The notes under the pieces were generated by a model. That model saw nothing but the letters and a program-made list of their open reading frames with translations, ran no database searches and was not told the origin of the DNA. Positions 2,876 to 41,375 of a stretch of 43,944 bases of DNA are shown in pieces. Both the position numbers and the translations under genes were made by a program. Numbering within the stretch: the stretch's first letter is position 1; each line of letters begins with the position of its first letter. The stretch covers positions 1 through 43,944 of the IMG/VR virus record IMGVR_UViG_3300042397_001280; one strand, written 5' to 3'. Source of the stretch: a virus.

Positions 2876-2966
2876 GGAGGGGTGGCAGAGTGGTTTAATG
2901 CAGCGCTCTTGAAAAGCGCCGAAGTTTCAAAGACTTCCGTGGGTTCAAATCCCACCCCCTCCGCCA
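2876..2966 (+). tRNA. tRNA-Ser (anticodon UGA)
   Basis: This is a complete class II tRNA. The 7-bp acceptor stem is GGAGGGG (2876-2882) with CCCCTCC (2956-2962), then discriminator G2963 and encoded CCA (2964-2966). The anticodon stem is GCGCT/AGCGC with loop CTTGAAA, giving anticodon TGA. A long variable arm follows, and the T stem is GTGGG/CCCAC around TTCAAAT. All serine-type features are present. Its position directly after int suggests that it is, or overlaps, the attachment site. It may instead supply the phage with a serine tRNA. Confidence 0.95.
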
Positions 2967-15600: not shown

Positions 15601-16836
15601 GCTTGGGAGTTTCACGCGGCCCGAGCGCCGGATCGCAGAACTGTCAGCGGCCTTCGCGGTGATCTGACCGTTGGTGCCAAATCCGTCGTCCTGTGAGTTA
15701 TCCCAAACGGCGTTCACCCATGTGGTTCCACCGACCGGGCGATACTGCACCTCAACAATAACGGTCGCCTGCTTCTTGTTGCCCTTGTTGTCGAAGTAGA
15801 ACAGGCCTTGAGGGAAGGCAAGATCGACGGAGAACTCGACGCTGTTAACAGCTGTTGTGCGCTCTACCCAGTCGTTGCTGGTGGTCGCCGAGAACGGGCC
15901 ATACGCCTGTGTGTCCGGGTTGTAGGTGTAGTATTCACCGCCATAGCCGTACCCACCGGGATAGTAGCCGGTGCTCTGGAATGGCTCGAGGCGGATAGAG
16001 AGGTTCTCTTCTGTCACCGTGCGGGTGAACAGCGTGAGATCGGCGTCGGTGCTCCAGCCCTCGCGCACCTCGTACTCGACGTTCTTAAATGCGGTGATCG
16101 GCGTCTCGCCAATCTTGATGTTCTCGATTTTAAGCGGACCCCAGCCCACGACCAGCGCCATGCGCAAGTACTCATCATCGCCCTGAAGCTCCGAGTAAGG
16201 GCGGGCGGCCATCATCGGGAAAAGGCGGCGCTTACCAAAGAGACGCGGGACGTTCGCGAAGGGAGAGAACTGGTTTGAAGTCGAGGTGAGATCGAACCTC
16301 GGATCGTCCTGTGTCATGCTGCCAAGGCTAGGCGGCGGGATCAGTGCGTTAAGGGCGAGGAAGCCCACGACGTTTATTGCCGTCATTACGCCGGCGACAA
16401 GGAGTTTTCCGCCGAGGGTTGCGGTGATTGTTCCGGCAGTCGCGGAGCCGCCAGCAATGGTTGCGGCGATCTGCGGCGCGAACTGCCATGCGACGACCGC
16501 AATTGCGATCAGCGCGATCATCTTGAAGATGTCTTTACCGCTCTTGCCCGGGACGACGCGGATGTAGACGTTCTGCCCGGCCTTTACGCGAGTGGTCGCC
16601 CACTGTTCGCGAGAGATTTCGATATCATTGATCCAGACGCGCAGATACTGGCTGTATTCAGCCGGCAGCTTGACGGCGGCCTGCTGCACAACGGTTTCAA
16701 GTGTCGATCCTTCGACAACCGCCGCGTACTGCACCGCACTCGCAAACGGGCTTGTGTGGAAAATGGCCGGGAGGGTTTTGCCACCCTCGATGATGGTGGC
16801 CTGTTCCTCGTGCAGCTGTTCGATCTCAGTGCTCAT
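6664..16836 (-). CDS. Giant tail-tip / host-specificity protein (lambda gpJ-type) with fibre repeats
   Basis: The protein has 3390 residues, about three times lambda J. Residues 1-100 look like a ubiquitin-like beta-grasp domain (LRVWINDIEISREQW, then IRVVPG), followed by a hydrophobic Gly/Ala stretch (about 105-170) as in lambda gpI. This suggests an I-J fusion. Residues about 185-870 form the conserved J core (FANVPRLFGKRRLFP opening). Fibronectin III-like domains follow (about 870-1045). Then come three to four large Ig-like repeats of about 215 residues (1050-1900), KLYRW modules (1910-2230), and four jelly-roll-like modules (about 2236-2430, 2640-2810, 2930-3080, 3115-3300) separated by runs of IAANAVTADK-type repeats. 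The C-terminus is IRVKIGDLSL. It should form the tail tip and carry receptor binding. It overlaps NlpC/P60 by 4 bases. Confidence 0.92.
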   Translation of the reverse strand: MSTEIEQLHEEQATIIEGGKTLPAIFHTSPFASAVQYAAVVEGSTLETVVQQAAVKLPAEYSQYLRVWINDIEISREQWATTRVKAGQNVYIRVVPGKSGKDIFKMIALIAIAVVAWQFAPQIAATIAGGSATAGTITATLGGKLLVAGVMTAINVVGFLALNALIPPPSLGSMTQDDPRFDLTSTSNQFSPFANVPRLFGKRRLFPMMAARPYSELQGDDEYLRMALVVGWGPLKIENIKIGETPITAFKNVEYEVREGWSTDADLTLFTRTVTEENLSIRLEPFQSTGYYPGGYGYGGEYYTYNPDTQAYGPFSATTSNDWVERTTAVNSVEFSVDLAFPQGLFYFDNKGNKKQATVIVEVQYRPVGGTTWVNAVWDNSQDDGFGTNGQITAKAADSSAIRRSGRVKLPSAGQYTVRLRRITANSGDKYVDVSYWTCLRSIRPDYPVLQKNVALIAIRMKASNQLNGVPQTISCEATSYLPVWNGSTWSYQLSANPAWAYADLLRRRGGETLLTDDRIDLTTIKAWADACDATAPNATEPRWSYSDVLEGGSIFDNMRRVASNARAFPIVRDGKHSIVRDIPQTVPVQHITPRNSFGYSGVKSFIDYPHAMRVTFFNKDMGYQRDERIVYYDGYTAANATKFETLELQGCTSATQAFREARYHMAVARLRPEEHSVSMDIEALRCTVGDLVRFSHDAIAIGIAATRVRSYTLDGTGKVATITFEDDLYFEAGKSYVIRARQVTGNSVLLSINNPGEGYANTVTLTTPAVTTAAPDIGDLVIFGEATKESAPMIIKKIDADDDFACTVHMVDAADAVHTADTGTIPAFNTLLSLPSESTTTDVPKVFISAVRSDDSVVITNPDGSLSYRILTQLQQPESSTARVDYFEVQHRIQNSSAWHTTTVERANGFGYIDGVEVGAVYELRSRAVPVDGQPSDWSTSVTHTVVGKLSAPNLPTGLSATAIPGGIDLAWTNSTSDDFWQVEIYENTTSNSATATKVAETSANKYSRLGLSSADGVRFYWLKSLNTSGVSTAFVGPVSTTALNRVLLGTLSSEAVNLPADAAGVVSSFLTAEGQLSVTDGPTNVLASATLSATASGCTGTVNTAADTPVAGKPKGYYRVTAMSAETGTLTITATYNGQSVNKVFSVTKARTGAQGNPASVLTLSSSAQTFTYDGSGAASPSSQSITLTANLQNIGAAVTFDATGYNAAGTSLGTVTLTGTGNSRSLSLANFGAAAYVVVTATASGFSDTTTIVRLAAGAPGAQPITGFLTNEAATLAAATDGTVSSFTPAGGTFKVFEGLTDRTGTSVTYTVQSSSNVTISISTAGVYTVTAMSADTATATLRAVYGGVTIDKALSLSKSRQGVPGNPASVLTLTSTAQTMTFDGTGNLSPASQSITFTANLQNVTGTATFAAVAYNSAGLNLSNITLDGTGNTRTLTSALFTGNAGTAYVVVTATLSGLSDTTTVVRLQAGAPGTQPITGFLTNEAATLAAATDGTVSDFAPAGGTFRVFEGITDRTGSPTYTVQSSSNATVSISAAGVYSVTAMSADTATATLRAVFGGVTIDKVLNLSKSRQGVPGNNASILTLTSTAQAITFDGLGSASPASQTITFTANLQNLSGTAAFTATAFSAANANLGTITLGGSGNARTLSNTLFSTHANTAYVTVSATLSGFTDSTTVVRLQAGAKGDPGNDAIVGFLTNEAVTLAATATGVVSDFAPAGGTFKVFQGLTDRTTNSTFTVSSSTNCTVSINGTTGVYSVSAMTADTASATLQAVFGGATIQKVLSLAKSKTGGVGDPGTAAISGYVTNEAIQLFAFADGTVTSYTGASGSFRIFSGNTDISSSFTLATGVSGNPQNLTVSYNLRDYSITGGFDANEDTASLTIRATGSGAYAGVTLDKVVSLSKAKGGYEIVGALPTTNNFAGRVVFLNTDGKLYRYIGAPTNAYIASVAAADVSGTLGSTQIADGAITSGKIGDGQVGSGKIADGAIATIKIADSAITAAKITDATISTAKIADSAITAVKIGNGAVSSAKFAAGIEPVGVFTGSALPTSQTTSTIYLTGTGKLYRWVGGAYSAVVDTGDLNGTISSAQIADGALTSGKFATGIEPVTVVSSLPASLSTRSVFNTSDNKLYRWNGSTYVATIPTTDLTGTIATAQIADGALTSGKFAAGIEPVTVVSSVPASQSTRSIFNTADNKLYRWNGSAYVATVPTTDLTGTIANTQIASVAATKITGVVGGGNLLANSGFKNFTGTIDTNGSLPASWAVYNNQGISITHRVVAGGLFGTNYVRLTANANTNQTFGVYGNTATGQYAGLWQPGLTYMLSFWARAGNAAAVGKTMSALFSNMGFASATQVENPPLVEGTWQRYVWRAVPANNANTPNSEFYISLIEAGPPPAYTITSGGILEICAPQVEQGELVSAYAPRPDEILPSSITATEIANDAVTSNKIIAGAVVAGKIATGAVEADKIAANAVTAAKINAGAVEADKIAANAVTAVKINAGAVEADKIAANAVTAVKINAGAVEADKIAANAVTAGKINAGAVEADKIAANAVTAVKINAGAVEADKIAANAVTAVKINAAAVEADKIASNAVTADKIAANAVTAGKIQAGAVSTDKLAANSITASKLAIVAAGMALNRDPQMATDAWLLGIGGSTLLAANTQFTNTTQNDSPVGTSVLQYSGSTGADWSSEIIPIDSSKVYRISLWARQTGASLHYITAAFMNATGAYLSGGGTGWNSGTYHYWGRGNQPFPSTWTFYSVVFGPGQAFTAPAGAKFIRLAMLQNYGSTATDTVYMADYRIEEVLPSTLIQNGAIVTDKLAANAVTAAKIAANTITANEIAASTITSNQIATDTIVAGNIAAGAIGASEIAANAVTAVKINASAVEADKIAANAVTADKIAANAITAGKIAAGSIATNALVVTGRGAAINDDPLCQDPTAWKDGEHGTTATRVTITDAPSGDSAYRSNAGTVGVSNSGASGIETSKLYPVSSSKKYRLTAFVRTVGGAGVSYLRLVDQVGNQIFISNLEGFAPSSTWTRYSGFYQPSASVKSVRLRAILNWTGTTGYHEVTDFRLEEMSEADLIVDGAIVANKIAANAITAAKIASNSITTSKLLVTATANSISDDPMFQDPSAWELTPNTSFLSGTGEAGAVANTYIGSSVGTDQQNQSVKSYPIGPGKRYRLSANLYASAGNARNMYIYVEFYDQNGAYIGSGVTGWGGSKSGYTYGGQPPTGVWTRQGGQFGPGTGREIPANTRSVKIGIWFNYSSGSGLVFQACQDLRLEEVVEADIIADGAIIANKVAANAITAEKINANAVTADKINAGAVTAAKINVTSLSAISATVGTLQTATTGARVQIKDNIIKVFDGTSTSDTTGIRVKIGDLSL
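9001..9480 (-). repeat. 60-bp tandem coding repeat (20-residue AVEADKIAANAV unit)
   Basis: Seven to eight head-to-tail units of exactly 60 bp lie inside the giant fibre gene. They encode 20-residue units (AVEADKIAANAVTAVKINAG). The protein is almost invariant, but the DNA copies differ at many third positions (for example GATCTTTACGGC against AATTTTAACGGC), so purifying selection acts on the protein. Shorter runs of the same repeat occur near 8050-8400, 7500-7590 and 6830-6960. Confidence 0.9.
11394..13680 (-). repeat. Large tandem repeats of about 645 bp in the fibre gene
   Basis: The phrase encoding FLTNEAATLAA recurs near 13010, 12370, 11720 and, diverged, near 13665 and 11395. Units of about 640-650 bp (about 215 residues) each hold an Ig-like segment (ASVLTLTSTAQ..., QSITFTANLQN) and a KVFEGLTDRTG segment. 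Three full units and a partial one are present. The copies have diverged at DNA level but keep collagen-like linkers such as GAPGAQP. Confidence 0.8.
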
Positions 16837-25867: not shown

Positions 25868-26851
25868 TTAGACCGCGTCGCTCCAGAACTGACCGAGGTC
25901 AGCCGAAACGAGCTTCATGTCGAAGCACATGTCGATCTCAACGCGGTCAGCGCTGCGATCTTCCATGCGGAACGACTTGATGCGGTTGCCATCCGCGCCC
26001 GAGCCAAGCAGGCCGGTCCACGAGAAGGTGTAGCCGGCGGTCGGCGTCATGAGGCCCGGAGCGCTCGTTGAGTAGGTGAGCAAGCAGTGGTTGCCACCAA
26101 TGAACGAGTGCGCGGCTGCAACGCCTTCAGCTGCGGTGTTTTCGATGGCGTTCATCACGAGGATTTCATCGACGCCAAACAGGGCTGCAAGAGCCTGCTT
26201 CGAAGCCATGGCAGGCGCACCAGCGGTCTGGCCATACTTCAGGCGGTCGATGATTTCCGGGTGATCGACAATGGCGTCATAGACAGCGCGGCCCATGATG
26301 AGCTTGTTCGGCTCGAAGCCGGTGCTCTGAGCGATTGCTGCCTTGCCAAGGCGAACGTCACGGATTGGGGTCGAGGTGGCATCATTCCACTTCTTGAACT
26401 GGTTGGCACCGGGAGTACCAGCCACACCAGCGCGGTTGTTGGTCCAGACGCCAGTCTTGAAGTAGGTGTTCGAGAACAGCTTCTCGCGCTTGATCAGCGC
26501 TTTGTGCGTCACGAACTCAGCCGCCTCGCGGTCGGGCGAAAGGACAGCATCCGCATTCGCACGGAGCTCATCGGGGATATCCTTGTGGAAGGAGAACCGA
26601 TTGGCAAAGTACGTCGGAGTGTTGTCCAGCGTGTAGCCACCGCCGGCAGAGGCGGTTGCGGGGGCGCGAAGCTGCATTTCATCGCGGTTGAAATCGCCAC
26701 GCTCATAGACGTAGTAACGGTCCGACTGCTTCTGAACAGGGATGTTCGGAAACACGCGGGTCGCCACAAAGTTCGCAGCGTTTTGCAGGAAGGCGATGCT
26801 GATGTTGGTCAGCGGCGCATTGACATGAACGTCACCGGGGGTCGGGGTCAT
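25868..26851 (-). CDS. Major capsid protein (HK97-fold)
   Basis: The protein has 327 residues. Evidence is an N-terminal arm (NAPLTNISIAFLQNAANFVA then RVFPNIPVQKQSDRYYVYER), and a core with FSFHKDIPDELRANAD, EAAEFVTHKALIKREKLFS and GRAVYDAIVDHPEIIDRLKY. This is the pattern of a common HK97-fold capsid family that lacks the long N-terminal delta domain and uses a separate scaffold. The gene has an excellent GGAG site and is flanked by cement and scaffold genes. It forms the icosahedral shell. Confidence 0.92.
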   Translation of the reverse strand: MTPTPGDVHVNAPLTNISIAFLQNAANFVATRVFPNIPVQKQSDRYYVYERGDFNRDEMQLRAPATASAGGGYTLDNTPTYFANRFSFHKDIPDELRANADAVLSPDREAAEFVTHKALIKREKLFSNTYFKTGVWTNNRAGVAGTPGANQFKKWNDATSTPIRDVRLGKAAIAQSTGFEPNKLIMGRAVYDAIVDHPEIIDRLKYGQTAGAPAMASKQALAALFGVDEILVMNAIENTAAEGVAAAHSFIGGNHCLLTYSTSAPGLMTPTAGYTFSWTGLLGSGADGNRIKSFRMEDRSADRVEIDMCFDMKLVSADLGQFWSDAV

Positions 26852-28196: not shown

Positions 28197-28592
28197 TTAC
28201 TCCTCCACTTTGGTGCGGCGGCCACGGCCACCTATAGAGAAGGCGCGGTAGACGCCTTTGCGGACTTTCTCTTGCACGCCGGGATCGGTGATGTGCATAC
28301 CAATCCACCAGCCCCTGCGGCCATCGCTCATGCCAACGGCCTTGGCGAAGGCGTCGTCGATGATTACGCTTTCGACCACCTCGCCAACGGCGTGACCGTT
28401 GTGCATGGCCTTGGCAACGCGGGCGTCGCAGACAAACTTGTGGGCTGCCTTGCGGAGCTCATCGATGGTGATGCGGTCACCTTGGTGATCAGTGACCACC
28501 TCGCCATCCTTCGAGACGACGTTCGCCCAGCCGCGCACATAGCGCCCGCTGTTATCAGCTTTCTCGAACTCAAAAGAGACCCCAAAGCCCAT
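28197..28592 (-). CDS. Prohead protease (XkdF-like, peptidase S78-type)
   Basis: The protein has 131 residues. ATG 28592 was preferred over an earlier in-frame start because GGAG lies 6 bases upstream and the domain starts here. The pattern VRGWANVVSKDGEVVTDHQG, then MHNGHAVGEVVES with H67, and GVYRAFSIGG with S119, is the Ser-His core of XkdF/herpes-assemblin-type proteases. A third residue is not clear. The enzyme matures the capsid by cutting scaffold and head proteins. It is short because its C-terminal strand region (SLVDDPAN) is in the next gene. Confidence 0.85.
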   Translation of the reverse strand: MGFGVSFEFEKADNSGRYVRGWANVVSKDGEVVTDHQGDRITIDELRKAAHKFVCDARVAKAMHNGHAVGEVVESVIIDDAFAKAVGMSDGRRGWWIGMHITDPGVQEKVRKGVYRAFSIGGRGRRTKVEE

Positions 28593-28701
28593 ATCGGCTC
28601 CACCATCACAAGCGTGCAAACGAGCGCAGATTGCGTCCGTTGCAATAGCCGTAACACGGTGAACACAGAGAAAAAAGAGCAATAGACGCTTTCGCGCACA
28701 T

Positions 28702-28726: not shown

Positions 28727-28766
28727 GATATCGACTAAGCGGTTAGTGTCAGCGGAGTGATTTCCA

Positions 28767-29285
28767 CTACTCGACTTCATCCTCTTCCCGAGGGGCGGGC
28801 ATACCGAGGAGAAGGATAAGGGCGTCCTCTACGAGGGCGTCCATGCGGAAAATTGCATCGCTATCTTCGATCTCGCCAGCCTCGTGCGGGATGATAGTCC
28901 CCTCTGTGAGGGATTTCGCGAGATATAGGAAATAGGCGTTCGCGGCGGTCTCGTTACTCTCACCGTCATCAATAGCGGCTGCGAGGTGAGCGCCAAGGCG
29001 GTCTGGCGTGTTCCATGCAGACTTGGCGTAATCAGAGCTGCCGCCCATAAAGATGCTTGCATGGGCCCGCGCCTGCTCCTTGATTTTCTCGAGGGCAACC
29101 TCGCCGGCAATCTTGTCGGCGTTGTAATCCGCCCGCAGCGCGATGATCGCTCCGAGATACTGGCGGATCAGGGCTTCTGCCACAGATGGAGACGTAAGGA
29201 GCTCACCATCGGGCACGACAAGGCCCATCTGCCCACGGTCGATGGCGCGTTCTTTGCTTCCTTCTACACTCTTACGGTCTGTCAT
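28767..29285 (-). CDS. Hypothetical head-region protein
   Basis: The protein has 172 residues, starting at ATG 29285 with an AGGGG site. It is acidic and helical (SPSVAEALIRQYLGAIIALR, VALEKIKEQARAHASIF) and ends in PAPREEDEVE. No motif is recognised. It lies between the polyvalent protein gene and the terminator, so it is the last gene of the first head transcription unit. It may be a partner of the polyvalent protein or another internal head protein, but there is no direct evidence. Confidence 0.6.
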   Translation of the reverse strand: MTDRKSVEGSKERAIDRGQMGLVVPDGELLTSPSVAEALIRQYLGAIIALRADYNADKIAGEVALEKIKEQARAHASIFMGGSSDYAKSAWNTPDRLGAHLAAAIDDGESNETAANAYFLYLAKSLTEGTIIPHEAGEIEDSDAIFRMDALVEDALILLLGMPAPREEDEVE

Positions 29286-29341
29286 AACTGCCCCTTAGAA
29301 TATCATAACTGTGTTTGCCAGCGCCTTGTGCGTCCGCTCCA

Positions 29342-32300
29342 TCACAGGGTCGTGAGGCCAACATCCGGTGGCAACATCAGCACCTTGATATCTGTGTAGC
29401 CGTCCTTCGTCTTTTTGGAGCTCAGTAGCACAAAGCGAGAGTTCGGGAGGGTGGTCACCTCCATTTCGCTTTGGAAGCGCTTTGAGCCAAAACTATCGAC
29501 TGCACGAGCGCCATCAGCATAAATGATCTCCATGCGGTGCTTGCCAAAGCCCTTGGTTGCAGTCGCATACCGCGATGTGGGCATTGGTCCATTCGCCTGT
29601 AGGACGGTCCCGGGCTCTGTTAGGAGTAGCTTCTTAGCCATATCCGCTGGCATATTCTGCCAGCGATATAGGCGCGTCCCGGCGGGTTGCGCGGTTGAGT
29701 GAGCAAGAGCTGCCTGTGTCAGCTCTGCCAGATTATGCTTCGAGCCGCCATCGGACGCTGTGTATCCGCCGTTCTGGTGATAGGTCTTACCCTCCCGGTA
29801 GGCGTTCGCGAGGGCGGAGTTATCGTGCATCATGTTAATGAAGTTCTTCGCCACCTCAGAGCCCTTGTCGTAATGTGGGTAGGCCGCCTTGCCCATGGCG
29901 TCGCTGTAGTCCTGCTCGCTGGCCGGCAGGAATTGCGAGATGTTGTCCACCTTGCCAAGAGCCATCCAGAAACCGAGCTGCTCATTCTTGGGCAGCGACG
30001 CAACGGTCGTGCCCAGCGGCTTCGAAGGGAATGCGCGGCTAATGGAATTTATGCTGGAGGCGCTCTGGCCTTCAAACACTTTCAGCGGGCGTGGCGGGCT
30101 CGCAACATCCTTCAGCGTCGCGACAGAGGCGTCGTAATAGCTGTTGACGAGCTTCGCCATAGCCTCTGAGACATGCTTCGTACCAAGCGCCTTGCCTGTC
30201 TCCTTATCGAGCTCTGTGAAGGTCATGTTTTGAAGAGCCGTGAGGTTGCCGGCCTTCAAGTGGGTTTCGATCTCGTTGACGAGCTTGTTGTTCTGATCAT
30301 TGACCCACGCCTTCGAGGACGCGGTGAAGAGGCCCGGCTTCTCCGGCAGCTCCACCTTCGCCATCGGAAGGTTTGAGGGGTCGAGCTTGGGCTTCGCTAC
30401 GCCCTTAGCGGGCGTGGTCTTTACTGTGGCCGCAGCAATCGTCGCCTGCGCCGCAGTCACGCCACCAAACAGAGCGGGATGCGCGTTCGATTTCTGGCCC
30501 GGCGTCACAACGTGCGGGGAGCCGAGCGCGGCGAGAACATCATTTGCGATCTGCGCCTGCTTTTTAGCGTAAGTGTTTGTCCCGTAACCGAGCGACAAAA
30601 TGCCTTTTACATCGCCAGCGGCAGAGAGCTTCTCGAGCACGTCAACCTTCGCGTTATGCGAAGAGGCATTCGTGTTATCCGCCGGTAGTTTCTTTGCAGC
30701 AAAATTTGGCATCGCCGGCAGAGCTTTCTCAGCGGCGTCCGTTGGCGTTGGCACAGCGGCGGGCTTCTGTAGCGCCATCTGCGCTTGCTGCACACGGGCG
30801 ACCACCACTGAGGCGTCTTGCTGCTCGAGCTTGGCGACCAGCGCACCGTGGTATGCGGCCATCACCTTGCCATTGGGGCTACCGGGCTTCCACGGCACGC
30901 CGCCGGCGTACTTGCCGGAGGTGGCCATGGCCTTCAGACCAGCGAGATCACCCTTCGCAGCAAGGCCCTCGGCCTTCTCCGCAAGCCCCTTGTAGTAGGT
31001 GTCGCCAAACTTCGCGGACGGGAACTCTGGCTTAGGGGGTATATCGATCTTGGGCGCTGCGGCAGCGATGGGCTCAGCTGCCTTGGCGTTGTCCGCTGCG
31101 AGCTTCAGCATGGCGTTCTGAGCGTGAACGGACAGGCTCGACGCGGCCATCGAAAAAGGCTTAATCGCGGGCACCGATGAGGCGAGCACATCGGCTCCTA
31201 CCTTCGCCATAGCGAGACCGCTGAGATCGCCGGCGCTGTATGCCTTGTCCATCTGCGCAGCGATCTTCTGAAGGTTCTGGTCGTTCGCATAGGTCGAGGT
31301 CAGAAGCGCGAGCTTCTCGGAGGCGGTCTTATTCGGGGCCTTGTACGAAACGCCGTTGGCAACGCCGTTCTTGGCGAGCGTAGAAATCGTATTGACCTCC
31401 TTCATCGCCTTAGCGAGCAGAGCAGCCTCCACCTCCTGCGTCGTCGGAGCGGGCTTCTCTTCCTTGGGAGCAGCGGCAGGCTGAGCCACACTCACGCCCA
31501 CGCCCATTTTGAATGGCAGGCCGGCCTTATCAAGGATCGCGTTCTTGCGGTCGATTAGGTTCTGAGCGAGCTTGTCCCGGAAGGCCTCATCACCGGGCCC
31601 GTAGGTTTTAACGAGGCTCTTGATGGTGTCGTCCGAGATGTTGTTCAGCTTCTCAGCGCTCGCCGCAAGATCGCTCGCCATCATCTTGCCGTAGACGGCC
31701 TTCTGGTGATCGTTCGTTTTGCGCATGCTCTCGAACTCAGGGGCGGACGGGTCGAGAAGGCCGCCGGTCGCACTCAAATCCTTCTTCTCGCCCTGTGCGC
31801 GGAACAGCAAAGCGCCACCCGGATCGATGTTGACGGCCTTGCCATCCTTTATCGCCGTATTTTCGAGCGCCGCTCCGAGAACGTCGTAGTTGGCGAGCCA
31901 CGCATGAATGGCAAAGTCACCGCGCACCGCGCCCATAGCGCCGAGGTCGGTGACTGAAAGTTTCGTGAGGCCATCGATCATCTTGGATGCGACGCCGAGG
32001 CCGCCTTCGTACTTACCCTCGAGCTCCACGAGCTTCATGTCGGGAGCGCCGGCCCCAGCTGCGAGCATGAGCTTGGCGGCCAGCACCTCGTTCTTCGAGC
32101 GGTCGGCCACGGTGGCGGCGTCTTGGTACTTCGCAGCGTTCGAGCCCTTCACCAGCCACTCTTGGCCGTTCTGTGTGTACAGCGCACCGGGGTTCGAGCC
32201 ACCGGGCTTCGGGCCTGTGACCGGGCCCATGTCAGAGAGCTTCTCTGGCCCCTTGATGCGGTCTGCCGTGGCGGCGGCCACAGGCTTTACGCTCGCGTCC

Positions 32301-33520
32301 TTTAGCAGCTGGATGCCGTACTGCGCGCCCATAGCGCCCCACTTAAGGTGCGATGAGCCCTTCTGGCCGGCATTGAAGGCATCGAGCTTGGAGATGTACT
32401 TACTAATGAGCTGCTTGACCGGCGCAACGTCACCCTTCTGAGCGGCAGCGTGCGCGGCGTTTACAGCCTTCTGGTATGCCGTATTCTTACCTGCGAGCCC
32501 GCCAGCGATCAGCGGGGGCATGGTGAGCCCGTCTGCGCCCATCGTTTTCCACTGGCCACCGAGCGGCGTCCCGCCCGGCCAGCGCGGCTGGTTCTGCCAC
32601 GAGCCACCCTTGGCCTTGGCGAACTCCATCAAATCCTGAAGGTCGTCGAGGATTTTCTTGTCATGGCTCATATTGAGCAGGGTCTTGGCATCCTTCATGG
32701 TTGCCAGACGCACTGCTTGGCTCTCCCAGCCCATATCCTTGGGGGTGCCGCCCACGCGCTCAGCGATGTACATGCGGGCGCGGCTGGTGGTGCGGTCGTA
32801 ATCACCGAGCACACCGGTGATCTTGATCTTGAGGCCAGTCTCTTCGAAGGCCTCCTTAATCGCGTTCTGTTGCATGGTGAGCCCGCTCTCAACGGTGCCC
32901 TTGGGATAGGTCTGCTTGTACCCACCAAACTCGTTCGTGGGCTTTGTCAGCCAGACGCGGCCATCGCTCTCCATGATCAGCACGCCTGCGCCGGTGGACT
33001 TGCCATCGGTCGGCTTGTTGAACGGGAACAGGGCTTCGAGGCGCTCGTTATTGCCGCCCACCGCGTGCCAGCCTTCCTTGGGCGGGCTCCACGATTTCAT
33101 CGGGACGCCGTTGAGGGTCGAAGGCGTATCACCGCCCGGCGTGAATGTCGCCGTGGCGTTCTTGTTGCCCCACGTGTCCTTGCTCGAGGGCTTTGTGGGG
33201 TAATTCACCGTGACCGGGTTGCCCTTGTCATCGACGCCAGCCGGGTGAGGCTTAGCGCCCGAAGGAGGAGCTGAGGGCTTCTTGTAGCTGCCCCAGCCCG
33301 GCCCGCCGACCTCGAGGAACGTGTTGCCACCGCTCTTGAACGGCGCGGGCTCAGACGGGTTGCCAAAGGAGTTCGTGCCCTTTGGGGCAAACTGCCCGCC
33401 CTTACTCGAACCTGAGGGGTGGCGGCTGTATCCACCGCTCATTTTCTTCGCCTTCAGCAACTCGAGGCGGGCCCGAGTGAGTGCGAGGTGCGTTTTCAGG
33501 TTCTCAGTGGCATCGGACAC
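29342..33520 (-). CDS. Polyvalent head-associated protein: NUDIX, kinase-like and ADP-ribosyltransferase domains
   Basis: The protein has 1392 residues. GTG 33520 has GAGGA 8 bases upstream. A TTG just before it is too close. It has a short N-terminus with RHPSGSSKGGQF (33-44), then a NUDIX domain (about 160-290) whose box runs from G208 and keeps E223, E226 and E227 but has Leu and Lys at two usual positions. The motif returns as RWPGGTPLGGQW (about 310-322). A HipA/PI3K-like kinase region (about 440-650) has K458, E478, D546, N554 and D566 (NIDPGGALLF). Residues 650-1240 are Ala/Lys-rich helical linkers repeating AxxGDxxxL. The C-terminal ADP-ribosyltransferase (about 1230-1385) has R1286 (LYRW), S1316 (PTS) and E1352-M-E1354. 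It lies beside the Mu F-like gene and may be injected with the DNA. Confidence 0.78.
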   Translation of the reverse strand: MSDATENLKTHLALTRARLELLKAKKMSGGYSRHPSGSSKGGQFAPKGTNSFGNPSEPAPFKSGGNTFLEVGGPGWGSYKKPSAPPSGAKPHPAGVDDKGNPVTVNYPTKPSSKDTWGNKNATATFTPGGDTPSTLNGVPMKSWSPPKEGWHAVGGNNERLEALFPFNKPTDGKSTGAGVLIMESDGRVWLTKPTNEFGGYKQTYPKGTVESGLTMQQNAIKEAFEETGLKIKITGVLGDYDRTTSRARMYIAERVGGTPKDMGWESQAVRLATMKDAKTLLNMSHDKKILDDLQDLMEFAKAKGGSWQNQPRWPGGTPLGGQWKTMGADGLTMPPLIAGGLAGKNTAYQKAVNAAHAAAQKGDVAPVKQLISKYISKLDAFNAGQKGSSHLKWGAMGAQYGIQLLKDASVKPVAAATADRIKGPEKLSDMGPVTGPKPGGSNPGALYTQNGQEWLVKGSNAAKYQDAATVADRSKNEVLAAKLMLAAGAGAPDMKLVELEGKYEGGLGVASKMIDGLTKLSVTDLGAMGAVRGDFAIHAWLANYDVLGAALENTAIKDGKAVNIDPGGALLFRAQGEKKDLSATGGLLDPSAPEFESMRKTNDHQKAVYGKMMASDLAASAEKLNNISDDTIKSLVKTYGPGDEAFRDKLAQNLIDRKNAILDKAGLPFKMGVGVSVAQPAAAPKEEKPAPTTQEVEAALLAKAMKEVNTISTLAKNGVANGVSYKAPNKTASEKLALLTSTYANDQNLQKIAAQMDKAYSAGDLSGLAMAKVGADVLASSVPAIKPFSMAASSLSVHAQNAMLKLAADNAKAAEPIAAAAPKIDIPPKPEFPSAKFGDTYYKGLAEKAEGLAAKGDLAGLKAMATSGKYAGGVPWKPGSPNGKVMAAYHGALVAKLEQQDASVVVARVQQAQMALQKPAAVPTPTDAAEKALPAMPNFAAKKLPADNTNASSHNAKVDVLEKLSAAGDVKGILSLGYGTNTYAKKQAQIANDVLAALGSPHVVTPGQKSNAHPALFGGVTAAQATIAAATVKTTPAKGVAKPKLDPSNLPMAKVELPEKPGLFTASSKAWVNDQNNKLVNEIETHLKAGNLTALQNMTFTELDKETGKALGTKHVSEAMAKLVNSYYDASVATLKDVASPPRPLKVFEGQSASSINSISRAFPSKPLGTTVASLPKNEQLGFWMALGKVDNISQFLPASEQDYSDAMGKAAYPHYDKGSEVAKNFINMMHDNSALANAYREGKTYHQNGGYTASDGGSKHNLAELTQAALAHSTAQPAGTRLYRWQNMPADMAKKLLLTEPGTVLQANGPMPTSRYATATKGFGKHRMEIIYADGARAVDSFGSKRFQSEMEVTTLPNSRFVLLSSKKTKDGYTDIKVLMLPPDVGLTTL

Positions 33521-33531
33521 GATCAAATTCC

Positions 33532-34093: not shown

Positions 34094-34261
34094 ATGAATA
34101 GGCTTGGTGATCTTGATATCTACAAAGAGCTCAAAGCCGTCCAGACCAAACTGGAGGCGATGGCGGAGCTCGCCATGTCGACGCGCTCCAGAACGACACT
34201 GCGGGCGGCATCAAAGATCATCGGCAAGCTCGCCTCAGCCTTCTTCAAGTCCGCCTTCTAA
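34094..34261 (+). CDS. Possible 55-residue antisense-strand protein
   Basis: A plus-strand frame fills the 178-base gap between two minus-strand head genes. It starts at ATG 34094, facing the minus-strand start at 34080, and ends at a TAA that overlaps the minus-strand stop at 34258-34260. The product reads as a plausible helical peptide (DLDIYKELKAVQTKLEAMAEL, given here by its first 20, with a basic-hydrophobic C-terminus). There is no clear ribosome site. It may be a real small gene or chance. Confidence 0.35.
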   Translation: MNRLGDLDIYKELKAVQTKLEAMAELAMSTRSRTTLRAASKIIGKLASAFFKSAF

Positions 34262-35400
34262 GGCTTCTCTCCTTCGAGCTGCTTGGGTTCGTACACGCGG
34301 TAGAACACCGTGCAGCGGCAATTGGGGTGCATCGGGGGCAACATCTGCGGCCCATCGGGTGTGATGAAGCTCTGTTGGTGCTTGATGCCCTTGGGCGGAT
34401 TGAGGCCCGGGATCGGCCCGCACACTTGGCAGAGCCGCTCATCTGCGGACACGATCCATTTCTTGCGCGTCAAATCCTCTTTGACAACCCCCTTATCGAG
34501 CGCTTGCTGCCAAGCGTCCTGAATGCCCATGTTTGTGGTGCGGATCGCCTCAGTGCGGGCGATGGTCCGAGAGCGGTAGGCCAGATATTTGCGTTGGTAC
34601 GCGGCCACCATCTTGTCGATCTGCTCAGGCTTCAGCGGCTTGCCACTCTCGAGGGCGCGCTTCAGCTGCCCGTCGTAGCGGAAGTCGCGCAGCCGGCGCT
34701 GGCCGATGCCGTCGAGCGGGCTGCCGTCCTCGCCGGGCCGGAGCACCTGCGTCCCATTCACCTGATCGATCTTGTTGCCAAGGCCCCATGAACCTGCGCT
34801 GCGCTTCAGGTGGAACGTCTCAAGCTCCTTGCGGTAGTTGTACACCGCCTGCGCCTGCTTATCGGTCAGGCCGATGATGCCCTTGATCTGCCGCGCAACA
34901 GCCTTGGGGTTCTTGCCGTCCTTCATGCCTTGCGTGAGGTACTGGCGGATGCCTTCGCGGGTGCCGTCCGATATCTGCCGGATGAGGCGCAACGAATAGG
35001 TTTGCAGCCACGTGATCAGGCGGGGGTTGAGCGAGTTGAAAGCGAACGAGACGCCCTTCACCTGAAGCGCCACCTGTGCTGCGGCCATCGCGCCAGCGGC
35101 GTTCGCACCGGTGTGCAGCGAGCTCGTGACACCTTCGAATGCGGCAATGCTTGCGGGGAGGTCGAGTAGCTCGAGCACCTTGCCAACGTCGCCAGCTTCC
35201 AGAGCCGTGATGATGGCGTCCACATCGGCTTTGCCTTGCTGCTTTACAAAGGCATCGAGGATCGCCTTGGCGAGCTCCGGCTCGAGCTTGGAAGCGAGCG
35301 CCTCCGCGTCGCCTTCACTGCGCCGCGCCTTGTAAATAATCGAGCGAGGGCTCTTGCGGCTACTCGCCAGTCCACCGAATGAGCTTCCACGCAACAGCAT
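34258..35400 (-). CDS. Minor head protein, Mu F-like (phage head morphogenesis)
   Basis: The protein has 380 residues. The C-terminal 150 residues carry the Mu gpF domain: SRTIARTEAIRTTNMGIQDA, KKWIVSADERLCQVCGPIPG with its CxxC pair, and PPMHPNCRCTVFYRV with the closing HPNCRC. These Cys and His residues probably bind zinc. The N-terminal part is helical. Such proteins are minor head proteins near the portal. Unusually, about 7 kb of other genes separates it from the portal gene. A GAAGGA site lies 11 bases before the ATG. Confidence 0.9.
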   Translation of the reverse strand: MLLRGSSFGGLASSRKSPRSIIYKARRSEGDAEALASKLEPELAKAILDAFVKQQGKADVDAIITALEAGDVGKVLELLDLPASIAAFEGVTSSLHTGANAAGAMAAAQVALQVKGVSFAFNSLNPRLITWLQTYSLRLIRQISDGTREGIRQYLTQGMKDGKNPKAVARQIKGIIGLTDKQAQAVYNYRKELETFHLKRSAGSWGLGNKIDQVNGTQVLRPGEDGSPLDGIGQRRLRDFRYDGQLKRALESGKPLKPEQIDKMVAAYQRKYLAYRSRTIARTEAIRTTNMGIQDAWQQALDKGVVKEDLTRKKWIVSADERLCQVCGPIPGLNPPKGIKHQQSFITPDGPQMLPPMHPNCRCTVFYRVYEPKQLEGEKP

Positions 35401-37095: not shown

Positions 37096-37301
37096 TGAGG
37101 ATAACAGTGTCATTTGCATGGAATGAAACTGAAGGAGAAGGCCGGATTAGCAAGGCAGACAAGCGTCGCCTGCTAGAGCTCGCCAAAACAGACTGGATCA
37201 CCGCAGCGGACTTTACGCAAGATGTGATGTACGACGCCGAAAACCTCTATAACGAGGTAATGGCTACCGCACGCGCCAACGCTAAATACCCCGGCGTTTG
37301 A
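37095..37301 (+). CDS. Hypothetical small protein at end of plus-strand block
   Basis: The protein has 68 residues. ATG 37095 shares one base with the preceding stop. It opens with a strand-like MRITVSFAW and continues with charged helices (ISKADKRRLLELAKTDWITA and NEVMATARANAKYPGV). Its end overlaps, tail to tail, the end of the minus-strand phosphoesterase gene by 20 bases, so the two gene sets are convergent without a visible terminator between them. Confidence 0.55.
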   Translation: MRITVSFAWNETEGEGRISKADKRRLLELAKTDWITAADFTQDVMYDAENLYNEVMATARANAKYPGV

Positions 37302-38352
37302 ACTTTAGGTAATCCGCGCCTTCGAAGGGGTCTGAGAAGCACATGAGCCTCTTCGGCCCCTCAGGCGCGTCTGGATCGACCACAGCGAGGATAGAGTGCC
37401 CATGGCTCTGTGAGCCAAAGCCGTGGAGATCGGCATAGTGATCGATCACCTTGTAGCCACGCGCCCGGGCGAGCCAAAAAATATTCCCACGGTGGTTGTG
37501 CTCGCCATTGAATAGGGCCCAATTGTGCTTGTGGCCGGCGACGTACAGGTGGGCATGGTCGCCCCATAGGGCTTCCTTCATCGGCCCGTGCAGCGGGTTC
37601 CACTGCGAGTGCCCGGGGAAGTCGTGCGAGGCATGCACCCTCAGCTCGACGCCGTTGGGCGAAACGAGCGTGAACTTGGCACCCCATTCCTCCATGGCAA
37701 CAGCTTCAGGGCGGAACCGCTCGAGCGTCTCAGAGCCCACTGGACCCGGCCATGTGTCATGGTTGCCCATGAGCCAGAGGAACCACGGCACCCCACTGTC
37801 ATTGAACAGCCACTTCACCAGCTTGCGTGCGGTGCTTGAGGAGGTGTCCTGCTCTGCCCACAGGCGTGCGAGACGCCCCATCCAGTTGTTCGTGGTGTCC
37901 CCCACGTTCACGGCGTAAAGCGCCTCTGTGTCCCGGGCGAGCTCGCAGTGCCGGCGGAACAGCGACCAGTCGCAGCCATTGTCATCGATGTGAGGATCGC
38001 CAAAGAACATGAGGGCGTATGGACCGGCAACAGGCACGGTGAACTTGCGCCACAGCTTCGCGTCGCGGTGCGCCTTGCGCCGCTCGAAGCGCTTCACGAG
38101 GGAGTTGATGAGCTCCTCAGGCGGAATGTCGTCGTCTGGAAGGGCTGCGGCCATGGGAATAGCCGAGTGCTGGACCGGAGGCAGCCTTACAAAGGCCTCA
38201 CGGGACCAGAGGCCAAGCGAACGGGCCTTCTTGCAGCGGCTCTCGAAAGCGCCTTCTGTGATGCCTGCGACCGGCGCGCCTTCACGGCAAGCAGCGCGGA
38301 CATTTCCTTTGTGTTTGTTGATGAGCTGAGCGGCGTACTCGTATTCCGCCAT
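37282..38352 (-). CDS. Calcineurin-like metallophosphoesterase
   Basis: The protein has 356 residues from ATG 38352. Earlier in-frame starts are possible, as no good ribosome site is seen. An N-terminal region (about 1-60, YEYAAQLINKHKGNVRAACR) looks like a DNA-binding or adaptor helix-turn-helix. The phosphoesterase domain has the metal motifs GDPHIDD, GDTTNN, GNHD, HASHD and AGHKHN. The GDxxN form at the second motif differs from the usual GDxxD. It may hydrolyse phosphodiesters or phosphomonoesters of nucleotides or nucleic acid. The substrate is unknown. It lies in the block between portal and the Mu F-like gene. Confidence 0.88.
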   Translation of the reverse strand: MAEYEYAAQLINKHKGNVRAACREGAPVAGITEGAFESRCKKARSLGLWSREAFVRLPPVQHSAIPMAAALPDDDIPPEELINSLVKRFERRKAHRDAKLWRKFTVPVAGPYALMFFGDPHIDDNGCDWSLFRRHCELARDTEALYAVNVGDTTNNWMGRLARLWAEQDTSSSTARKLVKWLFNDSGVPWFLWLMGNHDTWPGPVGSETLERFRPEAVAMEEWGAKFTLVSPNGVELRVHASHDFPGHSQWNPLHGPMKEALWGDHAHLYVAGHKHNWALFNGEHNHRGNIFWLARARGYKVIDHYADLHGFGSQSHGHSILAVVDPDAPEGPKRLMCFSDPFEGADYLKFKRRGI

Positions 38353-38419
38353 CGTCACGGTGTTTCGCAATTTTTCGTTCCCGCATGGGCGGGGAAGCGA
38401 GCCAGCAAGGGAATTTTGA

Positions 38420-38608
38420 TTAGGTGCGGTCGGCTTTCCCGTCGAGTTTGTCCTCGATCCGGCGGAGGTGCGCCACGATCTGATCAAATTGCTTATCTGA
38501 GTGCTCGATACTTACCTCGAGCCGAACTATGCGACTGTTCAACGCAACCCAAACGCCGATGAGAGCTCCGAGGAAGGCGAGCAATTGAATAACCGTCTCA
38601 ACGGGCAT
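38420..38608 (-). CDS. Small membrane protein with coiled coil (holin-like)
   Basis: The protein has 62 residues, starting at ATG 38608 with GGAG. A single N-terminal membrane helix (VIQLLAFLGALIGVWVALNS) is followed by a coiled coil (about 28-58, RIVRLEVSIEHSDKQFDQIV). This layout is found in small phage membrane proteins related to holins or to XhlA-like lysis accessories, though here the helix comes first. It might be part of lysis control or of the tail. The role is open. Confidence 0.65.
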   Translation of the reverse strand: MPVETVIQLLAFLGALIGVWVALNSRIVRLEVSIEHSDKQFDQIVAHLRRIEDKLDGKADRT

Positions 38609-38747: not shown

Positions 38748-41375
38748 TCAGGCAGCCACATCAATCGAGAGGACGCGATCATCGACCGAGGCGACGATGT
38801 ATTCGGCACTGGCCTGCATATTGATCCGACCGTCCGCCACGGCCATCACGATCTCAGCCACAGCGGTCGCCACATAGATGTAATCGGCAGCCGCAAGGGC
38901 ATTGATGCCCTGCACCTCGATGGCGACGTTTATGTCATCCGCAACAACCAGCGTCGCGATATCGCCGCCGGCGGTGGCCACTGCCGAGATCGCAGCGGCA
39001 AGAGCCTTGACCAGTTGGAGCTGTGCACTGGCTGAGCCCTGAGCCGCCACAGCTCCTTGCAGGGAGATTGCCTTGGTGATGCCGCCTGAGGCTTGCGCAG
39101 AGCTTGTGGGAGCGCCTGAGAGCAGCTTTCCGAGGCGCGCATCGGCCAAGGACACCACATTGCCCGCAGCGGCCCCGCCGAGCGGCTTGGCGAGGCCGAG
39201 CGAGGCCTGTGTGGTGCTTCCCACCTGCCCGGTGGCGGCCAGCGGCTTCGCAACGGTGATCGCGCCAGACGCCGCCGCGTTGGTGGCTGCGGTGGCCGTG
39301 AGTAGTTTACCGACCGTAATCGCCGCAGATGCTGCGGAGGATACCTGCGCGGAGCCGATGAGAGGCGTCGCGCCCAAAGTGCCAGAGGCGGTGCTCTGAG
39401 CGTTGGCAGAGCCCGACAGGTTCGCCGTGCGGGCCAGCGATGCAGTCGCAGCGGCAGTCGTTGCAGCCGAGCCGCTCAGGGTGAGCGTGACGGCGATGGT
39501 AGCCGAGGCCGCAGCGGATACCGAGGCCGTGGCAAATGCTGCGAACCCGACCGTCGCGCCGCCGGTGATCGAGGCGGTGCTCGAGAGTGCGCCGGCCAGC
39601 GGCTTTGTGAGCGTGATCGCGCCGCTCGACGCCGAGGTGGCAGCAACACTCGCGCCGATGGGCTTTGTGACCGCGAGCCCCGCGCTGCCGATGTTGGAGA
39701 CGACAACAGCGCCGCCCATGATGGGAATAATGAGGCTGAGCGAGCCAGTGGCCGTGGCAGAAACAGAGACAGACGCGGCGAGGCCAGCGGAGCCAAGGAG
39801 ATCGCCAGTAGCACTCGAGTTCGAGATCGCTGAGCCGCCGAGCGACTTGGTGACAGCTGCGCCCGCAGTGGCCGTGGCAACAGTGGCCCCGGTCGCAGAC
39901 AGGTTCGCGCCCCGGAACAGGGTGCCCGATGCGCCGGCAGATACCAGCGCAGAGCCAAAGGCGGCAAACGATACGTTGACCGCGCCGGTCGCCGAGGCGG
40001 TAACTGCGCTCGAGGCCCCGAGGGTCTTTGTGACGCCGAGAGGCGCGCTCAGGATCGAGGCGAGAGCAGCGGCAGAGCCATCGAGAGGCTTGACCAGCGA
40101 GATCGCCGCGCTCGAGGTGGCCTGCACTGCGCCGGCTGCGCCCAGCGGCTTTGTGATATCAATCGACGCGCTCGCAGCGGCCTGCACCGAGGCTGAGGCC
40201 GAGAGCGCCTTTACAACCTCAAGCCCCGCGCTCGAGATCGAGGCAAGGGAAGAGGCAGAGCCGCCAAGGAGCTTGGCAACCCCGAGGCTCGCGGTCGTCG
40301 ACGCCTGTACCGCACCAGAGCCCTCGACTGGCTTGCTAATAGAGAGGGCCGCGCTGGCAGAGGACGCCACCGCGCCGGAGCCTGCCAGCGTTGCCGTTTT
40401 CGATAGCGCAGCACTGGCAGAGGCCTCAGACGAGGCGGTGCCATCCAGCGTGACGACAAACGCGACAACGGGCGTGTAGAAAGCGTTGTCGTTCTCGAAC
40501 AGCGCGTCTTGCGTTAGGCTTTGGGCATTACCGGCCTGTGTGACTTCCGCAGCGTAGAACTGGTTGGCGTTATCGAGCCGCGTGCCTTGAGTAAGCGTGC
40601 GCTCAGTGGTGATGGACGCGGCGTAGAACGTGTTCCCGTTATTGAACCGCGTGCCTTGGTTAAGCGTGGTCGCCACACTTTCAACCAGCGCAAGGAATAT
40701 GCCTGCCGTATCGCCAGAAACAGCCAGCGTTGGGTTCGAGGTCTGCGCGGTCGCCGTGACAATGCGGAACTCGCCGCGAACCAAGATTGCATCCGCTGTA
40801 GAACTGGAGCGGTTGGCCGTGATTGCCGTGAAGCTCGTTGACGGCGTGATCTGTGTTGTGCTGTTCGCCTCTTTACCCAAGGCGCGGAAATAAAGACGGG
40901 CAAGCGATGGAAGGCCGGTAAAGGCAACACTACCGAAGCCGTTTGAGGCATCTACACCATTGGTGATCGCTGCCACATTTTGAACGATGGGGACGTTTGC
41001 GGCCTTGCTGAAGACCCACATCGACGCGGCTTTTTGGACGCGGGCCGAAGCAAAGGTGATAGTCGCCGGATCGCCTTGGCGTATTTCGCCACCGGCACCG
41101 GGAATATACAAGAACGCGGCGGTCGTAACGCCAGCCGCAGCCGCGCCGTTACCGTTGGTGAACTCTGCTAGTTTGCTCCAAGTGCCGCCGTCTTCGTTGG
41201 ATACAGAAAGAACGTCATTGCTAACGCTGTCTGTTGTGGTGGTGTTATCACAGGAAACGACCAGAATGGCGAACTGGCCGGTCCCGTTAATGTCACGGGC
41301 CGCATTAACATTGAGGGTGGTCGAGGAGGTGGCACTTACGCCAGTCCCCCCGTTGCCAACACTAGCAATCGCCAT
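38748..41375 (-). CDS. Repeat-built fibre-like structural protein
   Basis: The protein has 875 residues. Residues 1-240 form a beta-rich domain (Gly, Thr, Ser; possibly a lectin-like fold). Residues about 240-305 hold three copies of L-x-Q-x-x-x-F/L-x-N-x-N-x-FY (LNQGTRFNNGNTFYAA and two more). Residues about 307-809 consist of some 25 repeats of 20-21 residues with consensus LxhTKxLxGSAxVxASASA. The last 60 residues differ (VVADDINVAIEVQGINALAA). The repeats suggest a long rod or solenoid. With the three small beta proteins upstream it probably forms an appendage of head or tail. Extreme Ala/Ser content is the main oddity. Confidence 0.78.
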   Translation of the reverse strand: MAIASVGNGGTGVSATSSTTLNVNAARDINGTGQFAILVVSCDNTTTTDSVSNDVLSVSNEDGGTWSKLAEFTNGNGAAAAGVTTAAFLYIPGAGGEIRQGDPATITFASARVQKAASMWVFSKAANVPIVQNVAAITNGVDASNGFGSVAFTGLPSLARLYFRALGKEANSTTQITPSTSFTAITANRSSSTADAILVRGEFRIVTATAQTSNPTLAVSGDTAGIFLALVESVATTLNQGTRFNNGNTFYAASITTERTLTQGTRLDNANQFYAAEVTQAGNAQSLTQDALFENDNAFYTPVVAFVVTLDGTASSEASASAALSKTATLAGSGAVASSASAALSISKPVEGSGAVQASTTASLGVAKLLGGSASSLASISSAGLEVVKALSASASVQAAASASIDITKPLGAAGAVQATSSAAISLVKPLDGSAAALASILSAPLGVTKTLGASSAVTASATGAVNVSFAAFGSALVSAGASGTLFRGANLSATGATVATATAGAAVTKSLGGSAISNSSATGDLLGSAGLAASVSVSATATGSLSLIIPIMGGAVVVSNIGSAGLAVTKPIGASVAATSASSGAITLTKPLAGALSSTASITGGATVGFAAFATASVSAAASATIAVTLTLSGSAATTAAATASLARTANLSGSANAQSTASGTLGATPLIGSAQVSSAASAAITVGKLLTATAATNAAASGAITVAKPLAATGQVGSTTQASLGLAKPLGGAAAGNVVSLADARLGKLLSGAPTSSAQASGGITKAISLQGAVAAQGSASAQLQLVKALAAAISAVATAGGDIATLVVADDINVAIEVQGINALAAADYIYVATAVAEIVMAVADGRINMQASAEYIVASVDDRVLSIDVAA
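38930..40455 (-). repeat. 60-63 bp tandem coding repeats in the fibre-like gene
   Basis: About 25 head-to-tail copies each encode 20-21 residues rich in Ala, Ser and Gly, with a recurring KxL or KPLxGS core. DNA copies are diverged, so this is an old array. The unit length equals that of the giant tail fibre's 60-bp repeats. Confidence 0.85.

What the first reader, a model, noticed from the sequence alone, without database searches (positions are those of the whole stretch)
29342..33520. A predicted NUDIX-kinase-ADP-ribosyltransferase protein among the head genes
Three enzyme signatures lie in one 1392-residue frame: a NUDIX box with E223/E226/E227, a HipA/PI3K-like kinase set (K458, E478, D546, N554, D566) and a C-terminal ADP-ribosyltransferase triad (R1286, S1316, E1352-x-E1354). 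Two copies of a P-x-G-x-x-x-GGQF/W motif flank the NUDIX domain. T4 Alt is a packaged, injected ADP-ribosyltransferase, and polyvalent phage head proteins are known. A transferase able to add ADP-ribose, a kinase, and a NUDIX domain able to hydrolyse ADP-ribose or capped nucleotides, all delivered together, would be a self-contained host-reprogramming system. Delivery and targets are inference.
Basis: partly seen in the sequence, partly recalled or inferred. Interest (0 to 1): 0.88.

Follow-up and report, generated by a model that had tools for sequence, protein, structure and literature searches.

The report
Phage three-enzyme effector with swappable toxin
A phage gene in the head-building cluster encodes one large protein with a NUDIX hydrolase, a HipA/CtkA-like kinase and an arginine-type ADP-ribosyltransferase; hundreds of phages carry related kinase proteins, and in many of them the ADP-ribosyltransferase is swapped between phages together with a previously unnamed small partner gene, as in toxin-antidote systems.

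Summary
Window 29342-33526, minus strand, is one 1394-aa ORF with three real enzyme domains. NUDIX passes Pfam. The kinase model (pLDDT 95.8) matches CtkA, PI4KII and HipA, and all five catalytic residues are invariant in 64 homologues. The C-terminal model (92.5) is a C3/Vip2-type ADP-ribosyltransferase (ART) with E-x-E in 35/35 homologues. At least 588 viral-contig stretches encode the kinase domain. (1) A family of ~160-200-aa proteins with no known match (window 28767-29285) directly follows the ART gene in most relatives; partner-only and ART-only scans find the two together wherever the contig allows the check. (2) NUDIX-kinase and ART-partner evolve as two modules: in a relative with 97-99% identical flanks, ART (24% identity) and partner (27%) are replaced together. 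(3) MuF lies just upstream in 21/22 fused loci, and some relatives fuse MuF to this protein. Best reading: a head-packaged, injected multi-enzyme effector whose ART travels with a cognate inhibitor or chaperone. Packaging rests on context plus one GenBank record marking orthologues particle-associated. Activities, targets and partner function are untested. New variant of MuF polymorphic toxins/polyvalent effectors.

The parts
29342..33526 (-). effector ORF, 1394 aa: NUDIX - HipA/CtkA-like kinase - helical linker - ADP-ribosyltransferase
   Evidence: dN/dS
33389..33418 (-). first P-x-G-x3-GGQF motif (aa 37-46), before the NUDIX module
32645..32995 (-). NUDIX domain (aa 178-294); conserved module aa 80-300
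   Evidence: PF00293 43.4 bits; profile hit to Aquifex Ap4A hydrolase 2e-13; alignment A2
32549..32578 (-). second motif PGGTPLGGQW (aa 317-326), between NUDIX and kinase modules
31502..32245 (-). HipA/CtkA/PI4K-like kinase domain (aa 428-675)
   Evidence: model pLDDT 95.8; CtkA Z 16.4, PI4KII 13, MavQ 12.7, HipT/HipA about 11; invariant catalytic set
29945..31501 (-). linker aa 676-1194, with a repeat element shared by the relatives (aa 950-1019, partial second copy 1078-1104)
29363..29944 (-). ADP-ribosyltransferase domain (aa 1195-1388), R-S-ExE type
   Evidence: PF03496 in 13/15 homologues; PDB profile hits; model Z 15.4 to C3 exoenzyme, 13.4 to Vip2
28767..29285 (-). partner gene, 172 aa, acidic, family without database match; directly after the ART
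   Evidence: no Pfam/PHROG/PDB match
28763..30440 (-). exchange cassette: ART-coding end of the effector gene plus the partner gene, replaced as one block in L001
33532..34095 (-). 187-aa ORF between MuF and effector (PHROG 2859, unknown function)
34258..35400 (-). MuF head-morphogenesis protein
   Evidence: PF04233, PHROG 3517
28197..28682 (-). XkdF-like head maturation protease domain (PF14550)
25868..26851 (-). major capsid protein
   Evidence: PHROG 1005 2e-87

Best explanation
The protein is a late-expressed multi-enzyme effector that is loaded into the phage head, through or next to MuF, and released into the next host with the DNA. Its constant part is a NUDIX hydrolase plus a HipA/CtkA-fold kinase. 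Its variable C-terminal part is an arginine-type (E-x-E) mono-ADP-ribosyltransferase. The ART is encoded and exchanged together with the following 172-aa acidic protein, which most likely binds the ART in the producing cell as a cognate inhibitor (immunity protein) or loading chaperone until it is packaged. In the new host the ART would modify arginines of host proteins, as T4 Alt does, while kinase and NUDIX act on separate host proteins or nucleotides. Shown: domain identities, folds, catalytic residues, purifying selection, tight ART-partner linkage, joint exchange, head-gene context. Inferred: packaging in this phage, injection, enzyme activities, targets, partner function.
For: NUDIX Pfam match. 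Kinase model and fold matches; HipA_C in 8/15 homologues. ART by Pfam (13/15 homologues), PDB profile and fold. MuF upstream in 21/22 fused loci; MuF in the same chain as the kinase in L067 and L074 and as NUDIX, kinase and ART in L078. The orthologous ART, partner and NUDIX genes of Yersinia phage fHe-Yen8-01 are annotated particle-associated. Partner within 300 bp after 47 of 56 ART-kinase chains, 26/27 of the fused type. Partner-only scan: all 18 loci have the ART just upstream; ART-only scan: 21 of 22 loci have the partner, the 22nd contig ends. Distance correlations ART-partner 0.78 and kinase-NUDIX 0.75, but kinase-ART 0.26 and NUDIX-ART 0.16; bootstrap difference between partner-ART and partner-kinase 0.35 (0.17-0.50). 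Cassette swap: ART 24% and partner 27% identical between flanks 97-99% identical.
Against: No experiment shows this protein in a virion, any enzyme activity or any toxicity. The particle-associated tag covers 52 of 136 genes of fHe-Yen8-01, including primase and methyltransferases. The partner is itself tagged particle-associated there, which a pure immunity protein need not be. Eight distant ART-kinase chains have no detectable partner (leaving out L064 whose partner lies in an overlapping ORF). In L119 the partner lies in one open frame with NUDIX, which could mean an adaptor role. The first NUDIX-box glutamate is lost in most members.
Confidence: 0.62

Rival explanations
1. The partner is not an inhibitor but a head-loading chaperone or structural adaptor that takes the ART end into the capsid; the ART is not toxic enough to need an antidote.
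For: Partner is annotated particle-associated in fHe-Yen8-01; one open frame joins it to NUDIX in L119.
Against: Covariation is with the ART much more than with the NUDIX-kinase part; the precedent Bxa is neutralised by the binding inhibitor Bsi (PMC11699363).
Confidence: 0.3
2. The three enzymes form one pathway on one substrate: the ART attaches ADP-ribose and the NUDIX trims it to phosphoribose (as NUDT16 can, and as the SidE phosphodiesterase does in a related way; both from general knowledge), so that host hydrolases cannot undo it; the kinase adds phosphate or regulates the others.
For: Same chain or adjacent genes in most relatives.
Against: NUDIX and kinase are inherited separately from the ART; kinase-NUDIX without ART in Pseudomonas genomes; NUDIX profile closest to Ap4A and RppH enzymes.
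Confidence: 0.1
3. The protein acts late inside the producing cell (lysis or superinfection control) and its place among head genes only reflects late transcription.
For: No virion data exist for this phage.
Against: MuF fusions in one chain; MuF adjacency in 21/22; orthologues annotated particle-associated.
Confidence: 0.12
4. Ordinary polyvalent or MuF polymorphic toxin with nothing beyond what is published.
For: Polyvalent effectors (PMC5512222), phage ART and Nudix packaging (PMC9503650), MuF-ART toxin with immunity proteins (PMC11699363).
Against: No paper found in the open library combines a HipA-like kinase with NUDIX and ART; the polyvalent kinases described lack the C-lobe and the described polyvalent ARTs are H-Y-D type; the partner family has no database match.
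Confidence: 0.3

Closest known systems
MuF polymorphic toxins, in particular Bxa/Bsi/BAH of a Bacteroides stercoris prophage (PMC11699363; family in PMC5576092)
   Same: C-terminal arginine-type ART in a head-gene cluster, followed by a small gene; exchangeable C-terminal toxins; MuF linkage
   Different: Here MuF is a separate gene, with NUDIX and kinase ahead of the ART; no ADP-ribosyl hydrolase gene recognised next to it; partner family has no match to known families
Polyvalent proteins (PMC5512222)
   Same: Several enzyme domains in one large phage protein beside virion genes
   Different: ART is R-S-E (Vip2/C3-like), not H-Y-D; kinase is full-length HipA/CtkA-like, not the C-lobe-less type; linked partner gene
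Phage T4 Alt
   Same: Phage ART of the E-x-E, arginine type, expected to be packaged and injected (Alt's properties from the literature)
   Different: Multi-enzyme chain with a partner gene; packaging and RNA polymerase target not shown here
CtkA / HipA-family kinases
   Same: Fold and catalytic residue order; CtkA is the top structural match (Z 16.4)
   Different: Embedded in a phage effector, 14-16% identity, no HipB-type antitoxin identified next to it
Nudix Ap4A hydrolase / RppH
   Same: Profile similarity (2e-13 and 3e-5) and the RE-x2-EE metal residues
   Different: Substrate unknown; first box glutamate replaced by Leu

Membership tests
NUDIX hydrolase superfamily | Pfam PF00293 above curated cut-off and metal-binding E-x2-EE | tested here: met
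   43.4 bits vs 21.1; E225/E228/E229 invariant
NUDIX hydrolase superfamily | complete box G-x5-E-x7-RE-x2-EE-x-G | tested here: not met
   G-x5-E glutamate is Leu in 13 of 14 members aligned, the window included; affects the specificity claim, not the fold
HipA/CtkA/PI3K-like kinase clade | fold match over the whole domain | tested here: met
   CtkA Z 16.4 over 213 residues; PI4KII, MavQ, HipT, HipA Z 9-13
HipA/CtkA/PI3K-like kinase clade | catalytic K, E, D, N, D conserved | tested here: met
   64/64
HipA toxin (Pfam HipA_C) | HipA_C above the curated cut-off | tested here: not met
   13.5 bits vs 30.5 for the window; 8/15 homologues match weakly, best 1.5e-4
R-S-E ADP-ribosyltransferases (C3/Vip2/Alt-like) | fold plus R, S-T-S-like and E-x-E motifs | tested here: met
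   PF03496 in 13/15 homologues though not the window sequence itself
R-S-E ADP-ribosyltransferases (C3/Vip2/Alt-like) | NAD-dependent transfer | not testable with these tools
   needs an enzyme assay
Polyvalent proteins | several enzyme domains in one chain beside virion genes | tested here: met
Polyvalent proteins | ART of the H-Y-D clade; kinase lacking the C-lobe (as described in PMC5512222) | tested here: not met
   R-S-ExE ART; kinase model matches CtkA across its whole length
MuF polymorphic toxin | MuF domain N-terminal in the same protein | tested here: not met
   separate gene 34258-35400 in the window; met in relatives L067, L074, L078
MuF polymorphic toxin | toxin end exchanged together with a small downstream gene | tested here: met
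MuF polymorphic toxin | small gene neutralises the toxin | not testable with these tools
   needs a co-expression test
T4 Alt-type packaged ART | present in virions and injected | tested here: inconclusive
   annotation of orthologues in fHe-Yen8-01 only

The most novel reading that the evidence does not exclude
A large, widespread class of head-delivered phage effectors in which a constant NUDIX-kinase carrier is armed with interchangeable ART-plus-antidote cassettes; the antidote is a new family of ART inhibitors carried in the particle and shed in the new host.
Probability: 0.3. Interest if true: 0.78.

Novelty: new variant of a known kind. Interest (0 to 1): 0.64.

Why it matters
It makes head-delivered effectors testable in cultivated phages (ST4, Dolphis, Mecenats66, fHe-Yen8-01 carry orthologues). 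It adds a HipA/CtkA-like kinase to the set of predicted injected enzymes. It points to a new protein family that probably controls ADP-ribosyltransferases, and to modular exchange of such toxins between near-identical phages.

Tried and rejected
Pfam scan of the window protein alone shows only NUDIX; ART and kinase needed family alignments and models. PDB sequence profiles for the kinase gave nothing significant (the CBS-protein hit at E 0.18 and 1.2 is treated as chance). A broad ART alignment could not be used for a collection scan; a narrower one worked. PHROG 3953 'exonuclease' match at aa 1063-1133 (E 0.04) rejected as chance. Idea that the GGQF motif marks all head proteins: in the window it is otherwise seen only once, in the 3390-aa ORF at 6664-16836, so it marks mainly this system. 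No near DNA relative among named phages. No paper found on fHe-Yen8-01.
Full report
What is there. It sits between a MuF head-morphogenesis gene (34258-35400) with a 187-aa ORF on one side, and the partner gene, an XkdF-like protease domain, a 305-aa ORF and the major capsid gene on the other. Homologous proteins start with a similar stretch before the first motif, which agrees with the TTG/GTG start. Between the window and the near relative L001, dN/dS is 0.04 over NUDIX and 0.045 over the kinase, so the protein is real and constrained.

NUDIX. PF00293 scores 43.4 bits against a cut-off of 21.1. A profile of 14 relatives finds Aquifex Ap4A hydrolase (2e-13) and RppH (3e-5) in the PDB. The metal-binding glutamates are invariant; the first glutamate of the classic box is Leu in 13 of 14. 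The substrate cannot be told; ADP-ribose, capped RNA and Ap4A are all open.

Kinase. Sequence searches give only weak HipA_C matches (8/15 homologues, best 1.5e-4). The predicted structure is very confident (pLDDT 95.8, pTM 0.93) and matches H. pylori CtkA best (Foldseek 7.6e-06; Z 16.4 over 213 residues), then PI4KII, CotH, MavQ, HipT and HipA. K460, E480, D548, N556 and D568 are invariant in 64/64. A scan of viral contigs found 588 stretches encoding this domain, and one of genome contigs 145.

ADP-ribosyltransferase. Pfam ADPrib_exo_Tox matches 13 of 15 homologues (best 3.4e-15); the profile finds Lmo0066, Vip2, Vis and SpvB in the PDB. The model (pLDDT 92.5) matches C3 exoenzyme (Z 15.4), iota toxin and Vip2 over aa 1195-1388. 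Both glutamates of E-x-E are present in 35/35, the Arg in 32/35. From general knowledge of the family, E-x-E suggests arginine as the acceptor.

Architecture. Relatives show NUDIX-kinase-ART in one chain, kinase-ART plus separate NUDIX (Aeromonas ST4, Dolphis, Mecenats66, fHe-Yen8-01), kinase then NUDIX, and kinase alone. MuF lies within 3.5 kb upstream of 21 of 22 fused chains. In L067 and L074 MuF and the kinase share a chain; L078 holds MuF (25.3 bits, below the Pfam cut-off of 29.6), NUDIX, kinase and ART in one 2043-aa chain. In fHe-Yen8-01 the ADP-ribosyltransferase, partner and NUDIX genes are all marked particle-associated, but so are 52 of its 136 genes by my count, some of them not structural, so this is moderate evidence.

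The partner gene. Directly after the ART gene lies a 172-aa acidic ORF (28767-29285). Homologues stand at the same place in most relatives, align as one family (L30, G81, W91, N92, G161 conserved) and have no convincing Pfam, PHROG or PDB match. It follows within 300 bp in 47 of 56 non-redundant ART-kinase chains and in 26 of 27 of the fused type. Scanning by the partner alone gave 18 loci, all with the ART just upstream; scanning by the ART alone gave 22, of which 21 have the partner and one contig ends (L003, L056 and L070). In L119 partner and NUDIX share one open frame.

Exchange. In 34 loci, pairwise distances of kinase and NUDIX correlate (0.75), as do ART and partner (0.78), whereas kinase-ART (0.26) and NUDIX-ART (0.16) hardly do; the partial Mantel value of partner with ART given kinase is 0.76 (p 0.0005). 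This survives removal of close relatives and of the window itself, and the bootstrap interval of the difference excludes zero. The permutation does not model phylogeny, so I lean on the direct case: against L001, MuF, the 187-aa ORF, the XkdF-like gene, the 305-aa ORF and the capsid gene are 98-99.6% identical in DNA and the NUDIX and kinase parts 98-99% in protein, but the ART is 24% and the partner 27% identical; DNA similarity is lost between about 30440 and 28762, the latter five bases beyond the partner's stop codon. L001's own ART and partner are both nearest to those of L012, while its kinase and NUDIX are nearest to the window.

The motif. P-x-G-x3-GGQF/W occurs before NUDIX and again before the kinase in 23 of 31 NUDIX-first chains and is about 86-fold denser in ORFs of this system than elsewhere. 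In L037, where NUDIX and kinase-ART are separate genes, each has one near its N-terminus. I infer a tag at the head of each module, possibly for loading or processing; this is untested.

Mechanism. Most likely the protein is made late, held with its partner, loaded with or next to MuF, and injected. The partner is either an ART inhibitor, for which the Bxa/Bsi pair is the precedent (PMC11699363), or a loading chaperone. The ART would modify host arginines; kinase and NUDIX probably act on their own targets, since they are inherited apart from the ART.

Comparison. MuF polymorphic toxins (PMC5576092, PMC11699363) and polyvalent proteins (PMC5512222), with the survey of viral NAD-ADP-ribose systems (PMC9503650), cover the general idea. 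They do not describe this kinase type with NUDIX and ART, nor this partner family, as far as the open library shows. Verdict: new variant of a known kind.

Noticed in passing
L116, L117, L125, L171 (Pseudomonas syringae group and relatives): Kinase and NUDIX domains occur in one 560-773-aa protein without an ART detected and without a MuF gene detected nearby; could be a host-acquired or effector-like derivative.
   Followed up: partly
L146, L148, L150-L152, L173, L176 and similar bacterial contigs: Stand-alone 230-310-aa versions of the same kinase domain in bacterial genomes (Methylomonas and others), function unknown.
   Followed up: no
L005:3693-7287: A near-identical relative has the kinase domain split over two frames (frameshift or assembly error).
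   Followed up: no
window 38748-41375: 875-aa Ala/Ser/Thr-rich ORF with many degenerate repeats, no PHROG match, between head genes.
   Followed up: partly
window 37282-38487: DNA repair exonuclease-like (PHROG 7339) ORF inside the head cluster.
   Followed up: partly
window 6664-16836: 3390-aa ORF with several copies of an F-A-P-A-G-G-T-F-like repeat and one PTGVWTRQGGQF motif near its C-terminus.
   Followed up: no
L067, L077, L082, L098: Kinase-bearing proteins (L067 with MuF) whose C-terminal regions have no convincing Pfam match; possible other toxin types.
   Followed up: partly
L047:763-2460: 566-aa unknown ORF between MuF and effector that also carries a PAGTPGAKGGQF motif; possible second packaged protein.
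   Followed up: partly
window 2876-2966: tRNA-Ser (tga) gene on the plus strand.
   Followed up: no
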